Assembly: GCA_022560615.1 (NCBI GenBank)
Contig: JADFSR010000037.1
Coordinates: forward strand, 1 to 35,739
Direction: 5' to 3'
From: Gemmatimonadota bacterium
GTDB taxonomy: Bacteria; Gemmatimonadota; Gemmatimonadetes; Longimicrobiales; Gaopeijiaceae
DNA: 35,739 nt
In this document: positions 500-35,739 of the stretch, one piece after another
How the letters are laid out: every line of letters begins with the position of its first letter
Position numbering within the stretch: position 1 is the stretch's first letter
Position numbers and translations under genes: made by a program
Notes under the pieces: generated by a model
The model's database searches: none
What the model was told of the DNA's origin: nothing
The model's input: only the letters and a program-made list of their open reading frames with translations

Positions 500-910
500 C
501 TAGAAGGGTGATCGGAAAGGGGGGTGGGCCGCGCGACCCACGCCATACGGCTTGGGTGCCCCGTGCTTGCGCGCGTTCAGGCAAGGAAGGACGAGGAGTC
601 GTAGCTCTGCTACGGCGACGAGGAGAAACGAAGGATCAACCGCGCGGGCACCGACGCGAAGCGTTGGTCGCCACGTGCCCAACACAGAACGTGACAATAC
701 CTTACAAGCCGGTGGGTTGCGGTGGCACGGTCCCATCTCCGTCTTTGGAGCGCCTCGGACCACCGCCTTCGGCGGCGGTGCCCGCTACGGCTACACCTTC
801 GCCCCTCCGCGACCCGCGCAATGCGCGGGTGCCCTCTGGGGCCGTGGCACTCGGGGACCCGTGCGACAGCACGGGTGGCGGCTCGCCCCCCTTTCCGATC
901 ACCCTTCTAG
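500..910 (+). repeat. Palindromic repeat A, copy 1 (complete, 411 bp)
   Basis: The element is bounded by a perfect 25 bp terminal inverted repeat (500-524 and 886-910) beginning ctagaagggtgatcgg and ending in six G. Two G-T pairs extend the stem to about 30 bp. Inside are successive hairpins: 536-557, 601-613, 650-668 (8 bp stem, loop GAA), 761-780 (7 bp stem), 812-830 (8 bp stem, loop AAT) and 857-876 (8 bp stem, loop GACA). An inner arm pair at 721-735/837-850 encloses the hairpins at 761-780 and 812-830. A less structured linker at about 679-710 separates the left module (525-678) from the right module (711-885). It fills the space between a TPR gene and bamD. It contains no convincing gene. 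Confidence 0.93.
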
Positions 911-2431: not shown

Positions 2432-3424
2432 ATGAGCGAATTCTCAGACCGTGCCGTCCTCGTGACCGGCGGGGCTGGTTTCATCGGCTCGCACCTGGTC
2501 GAACGCTTCCTCTCCGAGGGCGCGGCCGTTCGCGTCATCGACGACTTTTCCACGGGGAGTCGTGAGAACCTTGCGCCGTTCATGGATCGCATCGACTTGC
2601 ACGAGCAGTCCATCACAGATCCGGCGGCGTGCGCGGCGGCGTGCGTGGGCGTCGACTACGTCCTGCACCAAGCGGCTCTGCCCTCCGTGGCGCGTTCCGT
2701 CGCCGACCCGACGGCGACGCATGACGTCAGCGCGACCGGCACGCTCAACATGCTCGTCGCGGCCAACGACGCCGGGGTCCGACGACTCGTCTACGCGGGA
2801 TCGTCATCGGCCTATGGCGACACGCCGACGCTGCCCAAGCGCGAGGGGATGGCGTCGATGCCTCGCTCCCCTTACGCGGTGGCGAAGCTCGCGGGGGAAC
2901 ACTACGTGCAGCTGTTCCCGCACCTGTTCGGGCTCGAGACCGCGGTACTCCGCTACTTCAACGTTTTCGGGCCCCGACAGGACCCGAACTCCGTGTACTC
3001 CGCCGTGATCCCTCTCTTCATCAACGCCGCGCTCGGCAGACACGCACCGACGATCAACGGGGACGGTGGTCAGACGCGCGACTTCACGTACATCGACAAC
3101 GTTGTCGATGCGAACCTGCGCGCGTGCACCGCGCCGGCCGAGGGCGTGAGCGGCGAGGTCTTCAACGTGGGCTGTGGGGAACGCATCAGCGTGACGGACC
3201 TGTGGCAGGCGATTCAGGCAGCGCTCGGCATCGAGCTCGAGGCGCGGTACGGTCCGGCTCGCGCCGGAGACGTGCGGGACTCGCTCGCGGACCTGACGAA
3301 GATCTCCGATCGCTTGGGGTATGGAGTGAAGGTCTCCTTGCGCGAGGGAATCCGACTTACGGCCGATTGGCTACGGAGCCAGGGGAGTGCCGCGATGGTC
3401 GGTTCCGGACAAGCCGAGGCGTAG
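2432..3424 (+). CDS. NAD-dependent sugar-nucleotide epimerase/dehydratase (extended SDR)
   Basis: This 330-residue extended short-chain dehydrogenase has an N-terminal NAD-binding glycine motif, TGGAGFIG, at residues 12-19. The active-site pair is Tyr148-x3-Lys152 in SPYAVAKLAGEHY, with the upstream serine in YAGSSSAYGD. RYFNVFGPRQDPNSVYSAVIP and DGGQTRDFTYIDNVVDAN are typical of the GalE/WbpP-like group that acts on UDP-hexoses or UDP-N-acetylhexosamines. The exact substrate cannot be read from sequence. The product probably feeds lipopolysaccharide or capsule synthesis. The TAG stop (3422-3424) is formed by the first three bases of repeat A copy 2. A paralogue lies at 9493-10464. Confidence 0.9.
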   Translation: MSEFSDRAVLVTGGAGFIGSHLVERFLSEGAAVRVIDDFSTGSRENLAPFMDRIDLHEQSITDPAACAAACVGVDYVLHQAALPSVARSVADPTATHDVSATGTLNMLVAANDAGVRRLVYAGSSSAYGDTPTLPKREGMASMPRSPYAVAKLAGEHYVQLFPHLFGLETAVLRYFNVFGPRQDPNSVYSAVIPLFINAALGRHAPTINGDGGQTRDFTYIDNVVDANLRACTAPAEGVSGEVFNVGCGERISVTDLWQAIQAALGIELEARYGPARAGDVRDSLADLTKISDRLGYGVKVSLREGIRLTADWLRSQGSAAMVGSGQAEA

Positions 3425-3680
3425 AAGGGTGATCGGAGAGGGGGGTGTGCCTAGCACCAGGATGAAATGAACAGACGAGTGTGTGGGTTGCGGTGGCACG
3501 GCCCCACCTCCGTCGTTGGAGCGTCTCGGACCACCGCCTTCGGCGGCGGTGCCCGCTACGGCTACGCCTTCACCGCTCCGCGACCCGCGCAACGCGCGGG
3601 TGCCCTCTGGGGCCGTGCCACCCGGGGACCCGTGCGACAGCACGGGTGGCGGCCCACCCCCCTCTCCGATCACCCTTCTA
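3422..3680 (+). repeat. Palindromic repeat A, copy 2 (259 bp, lacks the left module)
   Basis: A perfect 26 bp terminal inverted repeat occupies 3422-3447 and 3655-3680. It has the same sequence as copy 1 except that AAA/TTT is replaced by AGA/TCT on both arms, so pairing is retained. The left terminus runs straight into the central linker (about 3450-3480), and the whole left module is absent. The right module holds a perfect 15 bp inner stem (3492-3506/3608-3622, GGTGGCACGGCCCCA) enclosing hairpins at 3532-3551 and 3583-3601 (8 bp stem, loop AAC). Outside the inner stem is a hairpin at 3628-3647 (8 bp stem, loop GACA). The element supplies the stop codon of the upstream epimerase and abuts the tsaE ribosome-binding site. 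Confidence 0.94.
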
Positions 3681-5322: not shown

Positions 5323-5476
5323 CCCGTGGCCGCGAGACGCGCCGCTCTCCGCTCTGGGGATCGGTAGGGGGGCCTCGGATTAGGGTCCTTCGTCATCGTT
5401 CGTCGGGGGGGCTGGTTCGAGGCTTCATTCACGCCGATCCGACGCCGCTGCGAGCAGCATGTCTCGCGGCCGCGGG
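5323..5476 (+). repeat. Palindromic repeat B, copy 1 (154 bp)
   Basis: The outer inverted repeat is 5323-5338/5461-5476 (cccgtggccgcgagac, 16 bp with one G-T pair). An inner stem GGATCGG/CCGATCC lies at 5358-5364/5434-5440. It aligns along its whole length with 19758-19915, in the same orientation. Shared blocks include CTCTGGGGATCGGTAGGGGGG and CGCCGCTGCGAGC. It begins 5 bp after the rimI stop. The insertion sequence begins about 1 bp beyond its right end. No gene is evident in it. Confidence 0.88.
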
Positions 5477-5580
5477 TCGCTAGCCGGAAGTTCCCCGTCC
5501 GGGAGTGGCAGAACCTTGTTGCGGTTACAGGGTTTTGGGCTTATGGCGAGGTACAGCGTACTGGGAACAGTGTTGTCTCT

Positions 5581-7302
5581 CTAGAGGCGGTATGAGATGT
5601 CGAGGAGCTCGAAGGCGCGCGTCTGGAGTGGCGTGGGCTGAGCATACTGCTCGAACTCGACGTGGGTGTTGCCCATGCGCACGGTGTTCTTGGTCAGCGT
5701 CGCGAGGCTCTTCATGAGCGAGCGAAAGCTCTGGACGGGAAGGCCGTCCTCGGTGCGCTTGCGCCGCACCTTCTCCTCGGCGGCCTGGGAGCGAGCGGCC
5801 GGCTCCACGACGGAGGTTTTGCGTGCCTTGGCCGCTGCGGTATCGTGGTCGGTGAAGAGGATCGGAGCGAGGTCGCGCTCCATGTGCAGCCGCACGTAGA
5901 GCGCGAGCATGCAGAGGAACACGTGGGCCCGGACCCGGTCTACACGTCGGTGGCGGATCGGCCCGACCTCGAGCGCGAAGTCCTTCGAGATGCGGAAGGC
6001 CTGTTCGACGCGAGATAGGCGCTTGTAGGCCTCGACGACGGCCTCGCTTCCGAGTTCCTCGGCTGAGACGCTGGTGCGTAGCACGTAGATCCCGTCCAGT
6101 GCCGCCTCCTGGGCAACGGACTCGTCGTCACGCTCGAAAGTAAAGGCGTGCTCGGTGATCTCGTAGCGGAAGTGCTTGCCCATCTTCGAGCGGCCCAGGA
6201 TCCTGCCCACCCGGACCCCGATCTTGTCCTTGCCCCTGAGCGCTCTCTTCTCGCGCCGTGTGGCCTCGACCACCACCTCGAGCTTCTCCTCCGTGACACG
6301 CAGGAGCTCCTCGCGCGTGCGTGCCCGGTCCTGTGCCAGCAGCGGGTTGTAGCAAGCGATGAGTCGCTCACCGGGGAAGTCCGGCGACGTGATCTCCGCC
6401 AGATCCTGATCGTCGAACAGCGAGAGCTGAAGCGGGCCCTCCGCCGCGAGCTTGCGGATCGTGGGGGCCCGCAGCGAAGTGATCCAGTCCAGCCCCCGCG
6501 GCCTGAGCTCCTCCTCGATCCGCGCGCTGGTGAGCATGCCCCGGTCTCCGACCACGACCATACGCTCGAGACCCCAACGCTCCTGCACGCGCTCGAGCAC
6601 CGTGCTCACCGTCGCTGGATCGCCCGTGTTGCCCGCGAACACCTCGACAGCCACCGGCAGACCCTCCGGTGTCGTGAGCAGTCCGAAGAGCAGCTGGCGC
6701 TCACTCTTGCCCCGCTTCGGCCGCCCGTAGACCGCCAGCGGACACGTCCGACTCTCGAACGGTACCGTCGTCACGTCCCACAGGATCAGCTGACCCTCCT
6801 CCAGGTGACGACGGGCCAGCTTCCCCTCGATCCGCTTCTGGCCTCGCACCAACCAGTCCAGCGCCTCGTACAGATCATCGGCGTCCGCGTCCTCGACCCC
6901 CAGAGCCTCGCCCAGCGAGTTCGTCGCCGTGTCGCCTCCGAGCTGGCGGGCGGTGGCGAGCTTCGAGCATGGCTCGATCACGCGGGCACAGATCATGGCC
7001 AACGCCAGATCCCGTTTGGGGTGTGGGCGGCTGGACAGCAGCTGGGGTAGCCCGAGCTTGCGCATCGTGCCCAGCACGGCCGCCACGTGTCCGTGGGGCT
7101 GGGCCCGTAGGATCTGGAAGGCTTCTGAGGCAGGGACCAGCGTTTGTCCCTTGAGCGTGGCACGGATCGCCTCGATGGCCTCAGGGGGCAGTGCGGAGAG
7201 ATTGGCCAAGGTTCGCTTCTTGACCTGGTCGCCGACGCGGTAGGACTCGCGCAGTAAGACGGCGGGCGGCGAGTTGCGGTTGGGCACGACGTCGATGTAC
7301 AT
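5581..7302 (-). CDS. IS1634-family DDE transposase
   Basis: This 573-residue cut-and-paste transposase begins MYIDVVPNRNSPPAVLLRES and continues VKKRTLANLSALPPEAIEAI, the highly typical N-terminus of IS1634-family enzymes. The RNase H-like core shows candidate catalytic acids in LILWDVTTVPFE (first Asp), MVVVGDRGML (second Asp) and LSRVEQAFRISK (Glu). The frame is intact, so the element may be active. A GTG at 7308 would add two residues. I prefer the ATG at 7302 because it matches the family N-terminus and lies at the predicted transcription start. No Shine-Dalgarno sequence precedes either. Confidence 0.95.
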   Translation of the reverse strand: MYIDVVPNRNSPPAVLLRESYRVGDQVKKRTLANLSALPPEAIEAIRATLKGQTLVPASEAFQILRAQPHGHVAAVLGTMRKLGLPQLLSSRPHPKRDLALAMICARVIEPCSKLATARQLGGDTATNSLGEALGVEDADADDLYEALDWLVRGQKRIEGKLARRHLEEGQLILWDVTTVPFESRTCPLAVYGRPKRGKSERQLLFGLLTTPEGLPVAVEVFAGNTGDPATVSTVLERVQERWGLERMVVVGDRGMLTSARIEEELRPRGLDWITSLRAPTIRKLAAEGPLQLSLFDDQDLAEITSPDFPGERLIACYNPLLAQDRARTREELLRVTEEKLEVVVEATRREKRALRGKDKIGVRVGRILGRSKMGKHFRYEITEHAFTFERDDESVAQEAALDGIYVLRTSVSAEELGSEAVVEAYKRLSRVEQAFRISKDFALEVGPIRHRRVDRVRAHVFLCMLALYVRLHMERDLAPILFTDHDTAAAKARKTSVVEPAARSQAAEEKVRRKRTEDGLPVQSFRSLMKSLATLTKNTVRMGNTHVEFEQYAQPTPLQTRAFELLDISYRL

Positions 7303-7309
7303 GACCACT

Positions 7310-7337
7310 AATATATGATATACACATGGCGTGTCAA
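7310..7337 (-). promoter_or_regulatory. Transposase promoter
   Basis: On the - strand TTGACA (7337-7332), a 16 bp spacer and TATATT (7315-7310) form a near-consensus sigma-70 promoter. The predicted transcription start is at about 7303, next to the ATG at 7302, so the message would be essentially leaderless. An inverted repeat TGTCTA-caaat-TAGACA (7358-7374) lies about 21 bp upstream of the -35. Confidence 0.72.
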
Positions 7338-7496
7338 GACAAGAAGCATCGCTTACATGTCTACAAATTAGACAAGACTTACTGCCGCTAACTGTGCTTC
7401 TCGCTGGGACTTACAGCGCTGGAACCCTAGCCTGGGCCGGGTAACTTCCGGCTAGCGCGAGGTTGGGTCCCATCGTGCTATCCCGCCGCCCACCGA

Positions 7497-15512: not shown

Positions 15513-16010
15513 ATGAGATGCCCGCGGTGTGACGCCACCGAGAACCGGGTTGTCGATACGCGGGCGAGCCGGGGTGGCCGCGCGGTGCGCAGGCGCAGGG
15601 AGTGCACGGTCTGCGATGCGCGCTTCACGACCTACGAGTACATCGAAGAGCGTCCCGTCCAGGTCCTCAAGCGCTCCGGCGCGGTCGAGGACTTCGACCG
15701 CTCCAAGCTGATCGCCAGCGTGAAGATCGCTTGCGCCAAGCGCCCGGTCTCGGCGTCGGAGATGGAAGCGCTCGTCGGTGACATCGAGGACGGGCTCTCA
15801 CGGCAAGCAGGTCTGGAAATTCCCAGCGTGCAGCTCGGCGCCCTGGTCATGGAGCGGCTCAGCCCGATCGATCGCGTCGCATATGTGCGCTTCGCCTCCG
15901 TATACCGGAACTTCCAGGACGCCGGTGAGTTTCAAGAATTCGTCGACGAAATGACCGCTACTCAGAAGCTCGAGGCGCTCAGGAAGAACCAGGTGGAGTT
16001 TCCGTTCTGA
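15513..16010 (+). CDS. nrdR: Transcriptional repressor NrdR
   Basis: NrdR senses ATP/dATP and represses ribonucleotide reductase genes. The N-terminal zinc ribbon has Cys3, Cys6, Cys31 and Cys34 (MRCPRC...RRRRECTVCDARFTTYE). It is followed by an ATP-cone (VLKRSGAVEDFDRSKLIASVKIACAKRPVS...YVRFASVYRNF). Length is 165 residues, typical. The ATG at 15513 is chosen because the family always begins M-x-C-P; a GTG at 15486 would add nine unlikely residues. No nrd genes or convincing NrdR-box pairs were seen in the window, so its targets are elsewhere. The solo end of repeat A lies between it and tatC. Confidence 0.96.
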   Translation: MRCPRCDATENRVVDTRASRGGRAVRRRRECTVCDARFTTYEYIEERPVQVLKRSGAVEDFDRSKLIASVKIACAKRPVSASEMEALVGDIEDGLSRQAGLEIPSVQLGALVMERLSPIDRVAYVRFASVYRNFQDAGEFQEFVDEMTATQKLEALRKNQVEFPF

Positions 16011-16024
16011 GCCGCCGGCAGGCG

Positions 16025-16049
16025 CCCCCCTTTTCCGATCACCCTTCTT
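16025..16049 (+). repeat. Solo right end of palindromic repeat A
   Basis: Six C followed by ttttccgatcacccttct matches the right terminus of repeat A copy 1 except for one extra T and a degraded last few bases. No left terminus or internal module is present, because nrdR ends only 14 bp away. It looks like the remnant of a deleted or decayed copy. It ends 5 bp before the tatC ATG, where no Shine-Dalgarno sequence is visible. Confidence 0.82.
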
Positions 16050-19757: not shown

Positions 19758-19915
19758 TCGGGGGTGCCGCGAGACACGCCGCTCTTCGCTCTGGGGATCG
19801 GTAGGGGGGCTCGGGGTTCGGGCCCTTCGTCTTGGTTCGCCGGGGGCGCTGGTTCGGGGCTTCCTCGACGCCGATCCAACGCCGCTGCGAGCGCCGTGTC
19901 TCGCGGCACCCCCGA
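19758..19915 (+). repeat. Palindromic repeat B, copy 2 (158 bp)
   Basis: A perfect 20 bp terminal inverted repeat, tcgggggtgccgcgagacac, spans 19758-19777 and 19896-19915. The inner stem GGATCGG/CCGATCC lies at 19795-19801/19871-19877. It aligns with 5323-5476 in the same orientation. The outer stems differ between the two copies, yet each remains self-complementary. It starts 14 bp after the lptD stop. Confidence 0.9.
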
Positions 19916-21382: not shown

Positions 21383-21389
21383 AGCTTTG

Positions 21390-21748
21390 GGGAGCCTCTG
21401 CACAAGTAGGGCACGCCGCGTTACGGTGCCACGGCTCCAGCGGGCACCCGCGCAGGGCGCGGGTCGCGGTGCGACGACGGCATAGCCGTCGCTACGGCTA
21501 GGCGCGCCAACGACGGAGATGGGGCCGTGCCACCGTAACCCACACACTGTTTAGTCATGGCACACATGGTGTTGGGCGCAGGGGGGTCGCGGCCCAATAG
21601 GTCGTCTCTCCTCCTCGGACCACCGCCTTCGGCGGCGGTGCCCGCCCTGCTACGACTCGTCGTCCTTCCTACTCTTGAACTCGCGAGATCGGGCACCCGC
21701 GCCGAAGGCGTGGGTCGCGCGGCGCGCCCTACTTGTGCAGAGGCTCCC
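21390..21748 (-). repeat. Palindromic repeat A', repeat A core with different termini (359 bp)
   Basis: A terminal inverted repeat of 31 bp with one mismatch (21390-21420/21718-21748) begins gggagcctctgcacaagtag. It is unrelated to the termini of repeat A. Read on the - strand, the interior has the same left module, linker and right module as repeat A. It shares the inner arm pair (21421-21439/21520-21538) and the 8 bp hairpin at 21446-21464 (loop AGG). At the position of the 761-780 hairpin it carries a different one (CGACGGC-ata-GCCGTCG, 21475-21491). The right terminus ends 4 bp before the ATG of the formimidoyltransferase gene. Confidence 0.92.
21739..21743 (+). promoter_or_regulatory. 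Ribosome-binding site inside the terminal repeat of A'
   Basis: AGAGG lies 9 bp before the ATG at 21753 and is the only Shine-Dalgarno-like sequence there. It belongs to the right terminal inverted repeat, so it would be paired when the repeat folds as RNA. Confidence 0.5.
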
Positions 21749-21752
21749 TAGC

Positions 21753-27825: not shown

Positions 27826-28890
27826 GTGACCGAATCGCTCGAAGGGGAAATCCGCACCCTACGTTCTTTGTTCTGGTCGGACCGTGACCCGGATGGCCGC
27901 GGCTTCGCGCCACTCGCCGACGCGTATCGACGAGCCGGCGACACCAAGCAGGCGCTCGAGCTGCTCGGGGACGGCATGGACCGGCATCCGGATTTCACGC
28001 CGGGGCACGTCGTCGCGGCCCGGCTGTACGTGGAGCAGGGTCTCTTCACAGAGGCCGAGATTGCGGCTCGCCGGGTGCTCGATCTCGATCCCGAGAACGT
28101 GGACGCACTACGGTTGCTGGTCCGGGCGCTGGACGAGGAGGGGGAGGCGGTAGAAGCCGCGAAGGTGCGAGAGCAGCTAGCGACTCTCGAGCCCGAGCCC
28201 TCCGAGGACGAGATGCCCTCAGACGATTCGTCCGCCGTCGAGGAGGCGGTGCTCTCCTCCGAGGCCTTCGCCCCCGAGGAGCCCGAGGCCCAAGAAGACG
28301 TTGTCGAGTTCGATCCGTTCACGCTCGGCGGGGTCCTGGACGGGGAAGAAGAAGTCTTCGACTTCGGTGCGCTGGCACCGGATGAGCCGGAGGCGGTCGA
28401 GGAGAAGGTCTTCGACTTCGGCGCGCTGGCGCCGGACGAGCCCGCGCCAGACGAAGCTGCCGAGCAGATCCAGACGCGAACGATGGCTGAGCTGTACGTG
28501 ACTCAGGGCCTCACCGATCGGGCGATCGACGTGTACCAGCACCTGGTCGGCGCCTCCCCCGACGACGCGGGGTTACGGGCGCGTCTCGAGGAGCTAAGGG
28601 CCGGGGACCAAGAGACCGACGTCGCAAGCGGGGAGACCGGGGCACACACTCCCCATCCGCAAGCCGTCGAGCAGGCGCCCGAAGCTGACGAGAGCGACGA
28701 TGGCGAGGTTGAGACGCTCGCCCGCGACCTCGCTGCAAGCGGGGATGCCGAGCATGAGGTCGACACCCCGTTCGCCTGGGCCGAAGAGGTGAGCGAGGAG
28801 CAGGGCGACGTCGTCGACGGCCCGTCTATCGGGCGATTCTTTGATGACCTACTGAGCTACGGGCACGCATCGGAGCCGGAGGAGTCGTGA
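27826..28890 (+). CDS. TPR-repeat protein with acidic linkers
   Basis: This 354-residue protein has no signal peptide. N-terminal TPR-like helices (FAPLADAYRRAGDTKQALELLGDGMDRHPDFTPGHVVAARLYVEQGLFTEAEIAARRVLDLDPENVDALRLLVRALDEEG) are followed by an acidic linker. The linker holds a near-perfect tandem repeat of FDFGALAPDEP (about residues 178-205). A further TPR segment (TRTMAELYVTQGLTDRAIDVYQHLVGASPDDAGLRARLEELRAGD) and an acidic C-terminus complete it. GTG 27826 is chosen for its GGAG 5 bp upstream. It resembles in style the TPR protein at 22691. The stop overlaps aroQ (GTGA). Function is unknown; it is probably a scaffold or regulator. Confidence 0.83.
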   Translation: MTESLEGEIRTLRSLFWSDRDPDGRGFAPLADAYRRAGDTKQALELLGDGMDRHPDFTPGHVVAARLYVEQGLFTEAEIAARRVLDLDPENVDALRLLVRALDEEGEAVEAAKVREQLATLEPEPSEDEMPSDDSSAVEEAVLSSEAFAPEEPEAQEDVVEFDPFTLGGVLDGEEEVFDFGALAPDEPEAVEEKVFDFGALAPDEPAPDEAAEQIQTRTMAELYVTQGLTDRAIDVYQHLVGASPDDAGLRARLEELRAGDQETDVASGETGAHTPHPQAVEQAPEADESDDGEVETLARDLAASGDAEHEVDTPFAWAEEVSEEQGDVVDGPSIGRFFDDLLSYGHASEPEES

Positions 28891-35549: not shown

Positions 35550-35739
35550 CTAGAAGGGTGATCGGAAAGGGGGGTGGGCCGCGCGACCCACGCCTGACGG
35601 CGCGGGTGCCCCGTGCTTGCGCGCGTTCAGGCAAGGAACGACGAGGAGTCGTAGCCGAGCGGGCACCGCCGCCGAAGGCGGTGGTCCGACGAGGAGAGAC
35701 GATGGATCAACCGCGCGGGCACCGACGCGAAAGCGTTGG
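35550..35739 (+). repeat. Palindromic repeat A, copy 3 (left part, cut by window end)
   Basis: The left terminus of repeat A (same AAA version as copy 1) begins at 35550, right after the lolA stop. It is followed by the left module: the ACCCACGCC...GGCGCGGGT hairpin, ACGAC-gagga-GTCGT, a CACCGCC/GGCGGTG hairpin (7 bp) absent from copy 1 but present in A', and the start of the GACGC-GAAA-GCGTT hairpin at the window edge. Identity to copy 1 is high except where copy 1 carries a shorter hairpin (601-613). The right half is outside the window. Confidence 0.92.

What the first reader, a model, noticed from the sequence alone, without database searches (positions are those of the whole stretch)
500..910. 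Dispersed non-coding repeat built as a long stem enclosing many hairpins
Three loci (500-910, 3422-3680, 35550-end) share termini and internal modules, and a solo terminus sits at 16025-16049. Complete copies have perfect 25-26 bp terminal inverted repeats. Inside, an inner arm pair encloses two hairpins and a third stands outside it, so the right module would fold as a multi-branched RNA. The modules lie at gene ends, in the gene direction. They resemble REP/BIME or MITE elements but are larger and more structured than a simple REP pair. I do not recognise them as a described family.
Basis: seen in the sequence. Interest (0 to 1): 0.85.

Follow-up and report, generated by a model that had tools for sequence, protein, structure and literature searches.

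The report
Structured mobile repeat with swappable ends
The repeat is a small gene-less jumping element of Gemmatimonadota bacteria that carries one deeply conserved, branched folded core while its transposon ends have been exchanged many times, which suggests the fold itself is being preserved; what the fold does is not yet known.

Summary
The window's genome (Gemmatimonadota) holds 51 complete copies and about 18 solo termini. They are non-autonomous transposable elements (MITE kind), 193-432 bp, ending TA...TA and usually sitting in C-TA-G. A same-genus genome lacks them at the sites compared. Three end types (C, D, E) match, at 19-21 of 22 bases, the ends of insertion sequences in related genomes that encode IS1182/IS5-like transposases.

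The surprise is the interior. One branched fold lies inside at least five, probably eight or more, end sets. A covariance model of one arm finds it in 44 of 395 Gemmatimonadota genomes (27 genera). In a 36-copy alignment, 53 of 71 interior pairs show compensatory double changes (0 of 500 shuffles reach this). Rfam has no match.

So REP/BIME does not fit and MITE does. Transposition and conservation of the fold are well supported. A function as RNA is inferred: copies between tandem genes lie in gene direction 27:7 in this genome, 14:6 elsewhere. Expression is untested.

The parts
500..910 (+). complete class A element, CTAG to CTAG (T1 + C1 modules), just after the stop of the upstream gene
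500..525 (+). left terminal inverted repeat, class A
885..910 (-). right terminal inverted repeat, class A
712..884 (+). C-arm module (core shared by all end classes)
3422..3680 (+). complete class A element with truncated T module (T5 + C1); its first three bases TAG are the stop codon of the gene 2432-3424
3483..3654 (+). C-arm module
16025..16049 (-). solo class A terminus between the gene ending at 16010 and tatC (16055)
21388..21750 (-). class B element (different terminal repeats, same interior modules; T to C runs on the - strand)
35550..35739 (+). class A element cut by the contig end, directly after the TGA of the lolA-like gene

Best explanation
It is a family of non-autonomous transposable elements of the MITE kind. 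They carry the ends of IS1182/IS5-like DDE insertion sequences and are moved in trans by such transposases. They insert at TA, preferably in CTAG, which at gene ends is often a TAG stop codon; the element's terminal G restores the stop, so insertion between genes is nearly harmless. The terminal repeats form the closing stem (P1) of one branched fold with a T-arm, a C-arm and extra hairpins. The interior fold has been kept by selection across the phylum while the ends were exchanged between transposon types. Most likely it acts as a self-contained RNA structure in the transcript of the genes around it. Shown: presence/absence at orthologous sites, end identity for classes C, D and E, and conservation of the fold. 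Inferred: the moving enzyme for classes A and B, and action as RNA.
For: 51 complete copies in one genome; absent at the sites compared in a same-genus genome, the cleanest keeping a single TA. Ends of classes C, D and E match 19/22, 21/22 and 20/22 bases of insertion-sequence ends in related genomes whose proteins best match IS1182 (below NCBIfam's cut-off) and hold DUF772 + DDE_Tnp_1. C before the left TA in 36 of 51, G after the right TA in 38 of 51. A TAG of the element is the neighbour's stop in 15 of 51 and 12 of 26. Interior covariation: 27 of 49 pairs in A2, 53 of 71 in A4, 0/500 shuffles, slid versions far lower. Model R1 in 44 of 395 genomes; 44 of 52 copies examined are bracketed by inverted repeats of many types. 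Orientation 27:7, p=0.0008. A U-G pair is invariant in 36 of 36 (columns 307-352).
Against: No autonomous element with class A or B ends was found. No expression data. The greater stability of the T-to-C strand in this genome (45 of 50) is not seen when other genera are added (15 of 26 relatives). Orientation bias elsewhere is weak (14:6). Several empty sites carry extra changes, so the TA duplication rests on about three sites. Covariation could partly come from DNA-level repair of imperfect palindromes.
Confidence: 0.72

Rival explanations
1. The fold matters as DNA: palindromes extrude as hairpins or cruciforms that the transposase uses as donor or target. IS1272 (IS1182 family) is reported to target and replace stem-loops (PMC5678879). 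Hairpins replacing hairpins would also explain the module and end swapping.
For: IS1182-like ends; hairpin modules exchanged at homologous loops; combinatorial mixing of ends and modules; IS1272 literature.
Against: Copies made of terminal repeats alone exist at 56 bp and 34 bp, so the interior seems not to be needed, unless they are deletion products. The cleanest empty sites keep one TA and show no evident lost hairpin. Invariant U-G pairs and the orientation bias point to RNA.
Confidence: 0.25
2. The covariation is not selected: template switching or gene conversion between the arms of imperfect palindromes keeps them complementary.
For: Terminal arms co-vary within copies, as such repair would give.
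Against: Repair would perfect the palindromes, whereas the interior keeps bulges, non-paired islands and an invariant U-G in 36 of 36. Unpaired islands are also conserved across genera.
Confidence: 0.15
3. A host-useful RNA (3' UTR stabiliser, insulator or processing site) domesticated from a transposon.
For: Gene-end location and orientation bias; ERIC and NEMIS precedents (PMC2229807).
Against: Sites differ between same-genus genomes, so no site looks conserved; no terminator-like U tract.
Confidence: 0.2
4. REP/BIME repeats moved by a RAYT tyrosine transposase.
For: Extragenic, palindromic, many copies.
Against: 193-432 bp with long terminal repeats, TA ends, DDE-type insertion-sequence ends.
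Confidence: 0.03

Closest known systems
Bacterial MITEs of the RUP / Correia-NEMIS / ERIC kind (PMC2229807)
   Same: no transposase gene, TA at termini, terminal inverted repeats, many intergenic copies, fold into long stem-loops; RUP shares ends with IS630-Spn1
   Different: GC-rich, 193-432 bp; one branched interior shared across a phylum and carried by many different end sets; ends are IS1182/IS5-like
IS1182-family insertion sequences, including IS1272 (PMC5678879)
   Same: terminal repeats of classes C, D and E; some members target palindromes
   Different: no transposase gene; sites look like TA insertion rather than stem-loop replacement
REP/BIME with RAYT (PMC3733652, abstract only)
   Same: extragenic palindromes near gene ends
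   Different: size, ends, target and likely enzyme type
TIMEs, mosaic Tn3-derived miniature elements (PMC4133298, abstract only)
   Same: non-autonomous elements that form mosaics
   Different: Tn3-type ends; no conserved branched interior mentioned in the abstract

Membership tests
MITE | no transposase gene, terminal inverted repeats | tested here: met
MITE | mobile: present/absent at orthologous sites | tested here: met
MITE | target site duplication | tested here: inconclusive
   about three sites fit a TA duplication; others carry extra changes
MITE | ends shared with an autonomous element | tested here: met
   classes C, D, E; not shown for classes A and B
IS1182-derived | class A and B ends match an IS1182 element | tested here: inconclusive
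   best 16/22 and 14/22; intermediates such as CTAGAAGCCTGATCGGAG exist
IS1182-derived | stem-loop-replacing insertion as in IS1272 | tested here: inconclusive
   cleanest empty sites show no lost hairpin
REP/BIME | 20-40 bp palindrome units | tested here: not met
   193-432 bp elements
REP/BIME | associated RAYT tyrosine transposase | not tested
Rfam families | score above the gathering threshold | tested here: not met
   (best hits E 0.41-0.69, far below cut-off)
ERIC/NEMIS-like function | co-transcribed with neighbours, RNase processed | not testable with these tools
   no RNA data

The most novel reading that the evidence does not exclude
The conserved unit is the interior: a phylum-wide structured RNA that spreads by borrowing the ends of many different DDE transposons and acts as RNA in the transcripts of the genes around it, or binds a transposase. 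That would be a structured-RNA parasite or regulator that changes carriers, with the transposon ends doubling as its closing helix.
Probability: 0.3. Interest if true: 0.9.

Novelty: new variant of a known kind. Interest (0 to 1): 0.72.

Why it matters
MITEs are usually treated as decayed transposons whose interior is free to drift. Here the interior is the conserved part and the ends are exchangeable, over 27 genera. That makes a testable case for selection on the fold of a mobile element, and gives a ready set of natural end/interior combinations for asking which part drives spread. The TAG-restoring insertion would let an element sit at gene ends with little harm.

Tried and rejected
REP/BIME: rejected on size, ends and target. 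Rfam families: none. Covariation inside the window's genome alone: 1 of 40 pairs, no support. Strand-specific stability as general proof of RNA: holds in the genus only, dropped. Intrinsic terminator: the one terminator-like site in the stretch scanned (930-946) lies outside the elements. Autonomous element with class A ends: scanned all loci then fetched for convincing pairs 0.7-3 kb apart, none. Solo class A termini as ends of full insertion sequences: no second end found; several sit at stop codons between ORFs. Longest-open-frame gene calls were useless in this GC-rich DNA and were replaced by a codon-usage caller.

Full report
WHAT IS THERE. The three loci and the solo terminus are real. 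A 15-base piece of the terminus occurs 61 times in the 4.5 Mb genome (at most 1 mismatch) and the reversed control never. The 260-base query 3422-3681 matches 104 pieces. Complete copies fall into four end classes in this genome: A CTAGAAGGGTGATCGGAAAGGGGGG (20 copies), B CTAGGGAGCCTCTGCACAAGTAGGG (3), C CTAGCAGCCCGTGGTAGAAGTACAG (16), D CTAGAAGGCTGTTGAAGAAGTACAG (12). All 51 carry pieces of the same interior. At least five contigs, the window's included, end inside a copy, so the count is a lower bound.

ANATOMY. Between the ends lie one of at least four T-end modules and one of at least two C-end modules, plus truncated forms. Modules and end classes combine in many ways. The C-end core is shared by all four classes and differs by an optional hairpin that replaces a 3-base loop. 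Terminal arms co-vary within copies: mean mismatch 1.6 against 2.1 shuffled, 48 of 20000 shuffles as low.

MOBILITY. The same-genus genome G001 lacks the copies at the sites compared in three stretches, where flanking blocks are 78-91% identical. The cleanest sites show one TA where the filled site has TA, or a near form, at both ends: C13:33078, a 34-bp mini copy near C19:73250, and, with small changes, C13:37782. C precedes the left TA in 36 of 51 and G follows the right TA in 38 of 51, so the favoured target is CTAG, a word rarer than expected here (443 against 704). In 15 of 51 copies and 12 of 26 copies elsewhere the element's TAG is the stop codon of the neighbouring gene; the window copy at 3422 is one of them. 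Some G001 sites, including those matching the window copies at 500 and 3422, show sequence that resembles a decayed terminus, so deletion in G001 cannot be excluded at every site.

CARRIER. The genome holds an IS1182-like gene (L090, 472 aa) with ends CTAGGAGCCCGTGG. Related genomes hold insertion sequences whose ends match class C (19/22), D (21/22) and E (20/22). Their proteins have DUF772 plus DDE_Tnp_1 and best match IS1182, below NCBIfam's own cut-off; two also exceed an IS5 cut-off. Hence 'IS1182/IS5-like'. Classes A and B reach only 16/22 and 14/22, and no carrier with class A ends was found.

THE INTERIOR IS THE CONSERVED PART. The class A end is found in 11 of 154 genomes of the order, and a scan of the named genome collection hit only Gemmatimonadota. 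A 31-copy alignment over end classes A-E and at least seven genera gave 50 of 80 pairs with compensatory double changes. With the terminal repeats removed it gave 27 of 49, with 134 double-change cells against 43 shuffled, and 6-9 pairs when slid. A covariance model of the C-arm found 44 of 395 Gemmatimonadota genomes, 27 of 138 genera, including other families of the class. Of 52 such copies, 44 were bracketed by inverted repeats, of at least eight recognisable types; six of the eight misses are at contig ends. A 36-copy alignment at 53% identity gave 53 of 71 interior pairs with double changes, 92.8% of cells paired, 0 of 500 shuffles, slid versions 16-29 pairs. The structure was predicted from the same alignment, which favours it over slid versions, and relatedness can inflate the comparison with shuffles; the effect is still large. 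Rfam has nothing.

DOES IT ACT AS RNA? For: orientation with tandem genes 27:7, p=0.0008; an invariant U-G pair and a mostly G-U pair on the T-to-C strand. Against or neutral: orientation elsewhere 14:6; strand stability not general; no expression data; no terminator. I hold RNA action as the leading but unproven reading. Gene calls are from a simple codon model written here, not a published caller, and copies that share descent are not independent.

LITERATURE. Bacterial MITEs with TA ends and structured transcripts are known (PMC2229807). IS1272 of the IS1182 family is reported to replace stem-loops (PMC5678879). No paper on such elements in Gemmatimonadota turned up in the held library, which lacks most subscription journals.

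VERDICT. A MITE superfamily of an unusual sort: exchangeable ends, conserved branched interior. Transposon nature is firm, conserved fold is firm, function is open.

Noticed in passing
window 5329-5470 and 19758-19915: A second repeat family, ~142 bp and 86% identical, the second copy with 27-bp terminal inverted repeats; also matched in G001 C115:80774-80908.
   Followed up: partly
window 5478-7457: IS1634-family insertion sequence (575 aa transposase) with ends CTAGCCGGAAGTT, next to the 5329 repeat; not seen at the matching G001 position.
   Followed up: partly
window 28345-28452: 54-bp in-frame tandem duplication (78% identical) inside the ORF 27826-28890.
   Followed up: no
L040:4114-5315: Apparent IS630-like insertion (CTAGTGTAGTGTTGC ends) absent from G001; not scanned against a family library.
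   Followed up: no
L152:1460-1515, L123, L040:16248-16281: Copies reduced to terminal repeats or nearly so (34-56 bp palindromes).
   Followed up: partly
L068, L069, L137, L141 and others: Isolated 16-bp class A termini, several at stop codons, where AGAAGGGTGA could also serve as a ribosome-binding sequence for the next gene.
   Followed up: partly
L231:1467-1777 and the other rows of alignment A4, columns ~128-190: Purine-rich conserved stretch (GACGACGAGTCGTAG...GAGGAGGAGAGACGA), partly unpaired, conserved across genera; possible protein site.
   Followed up: no
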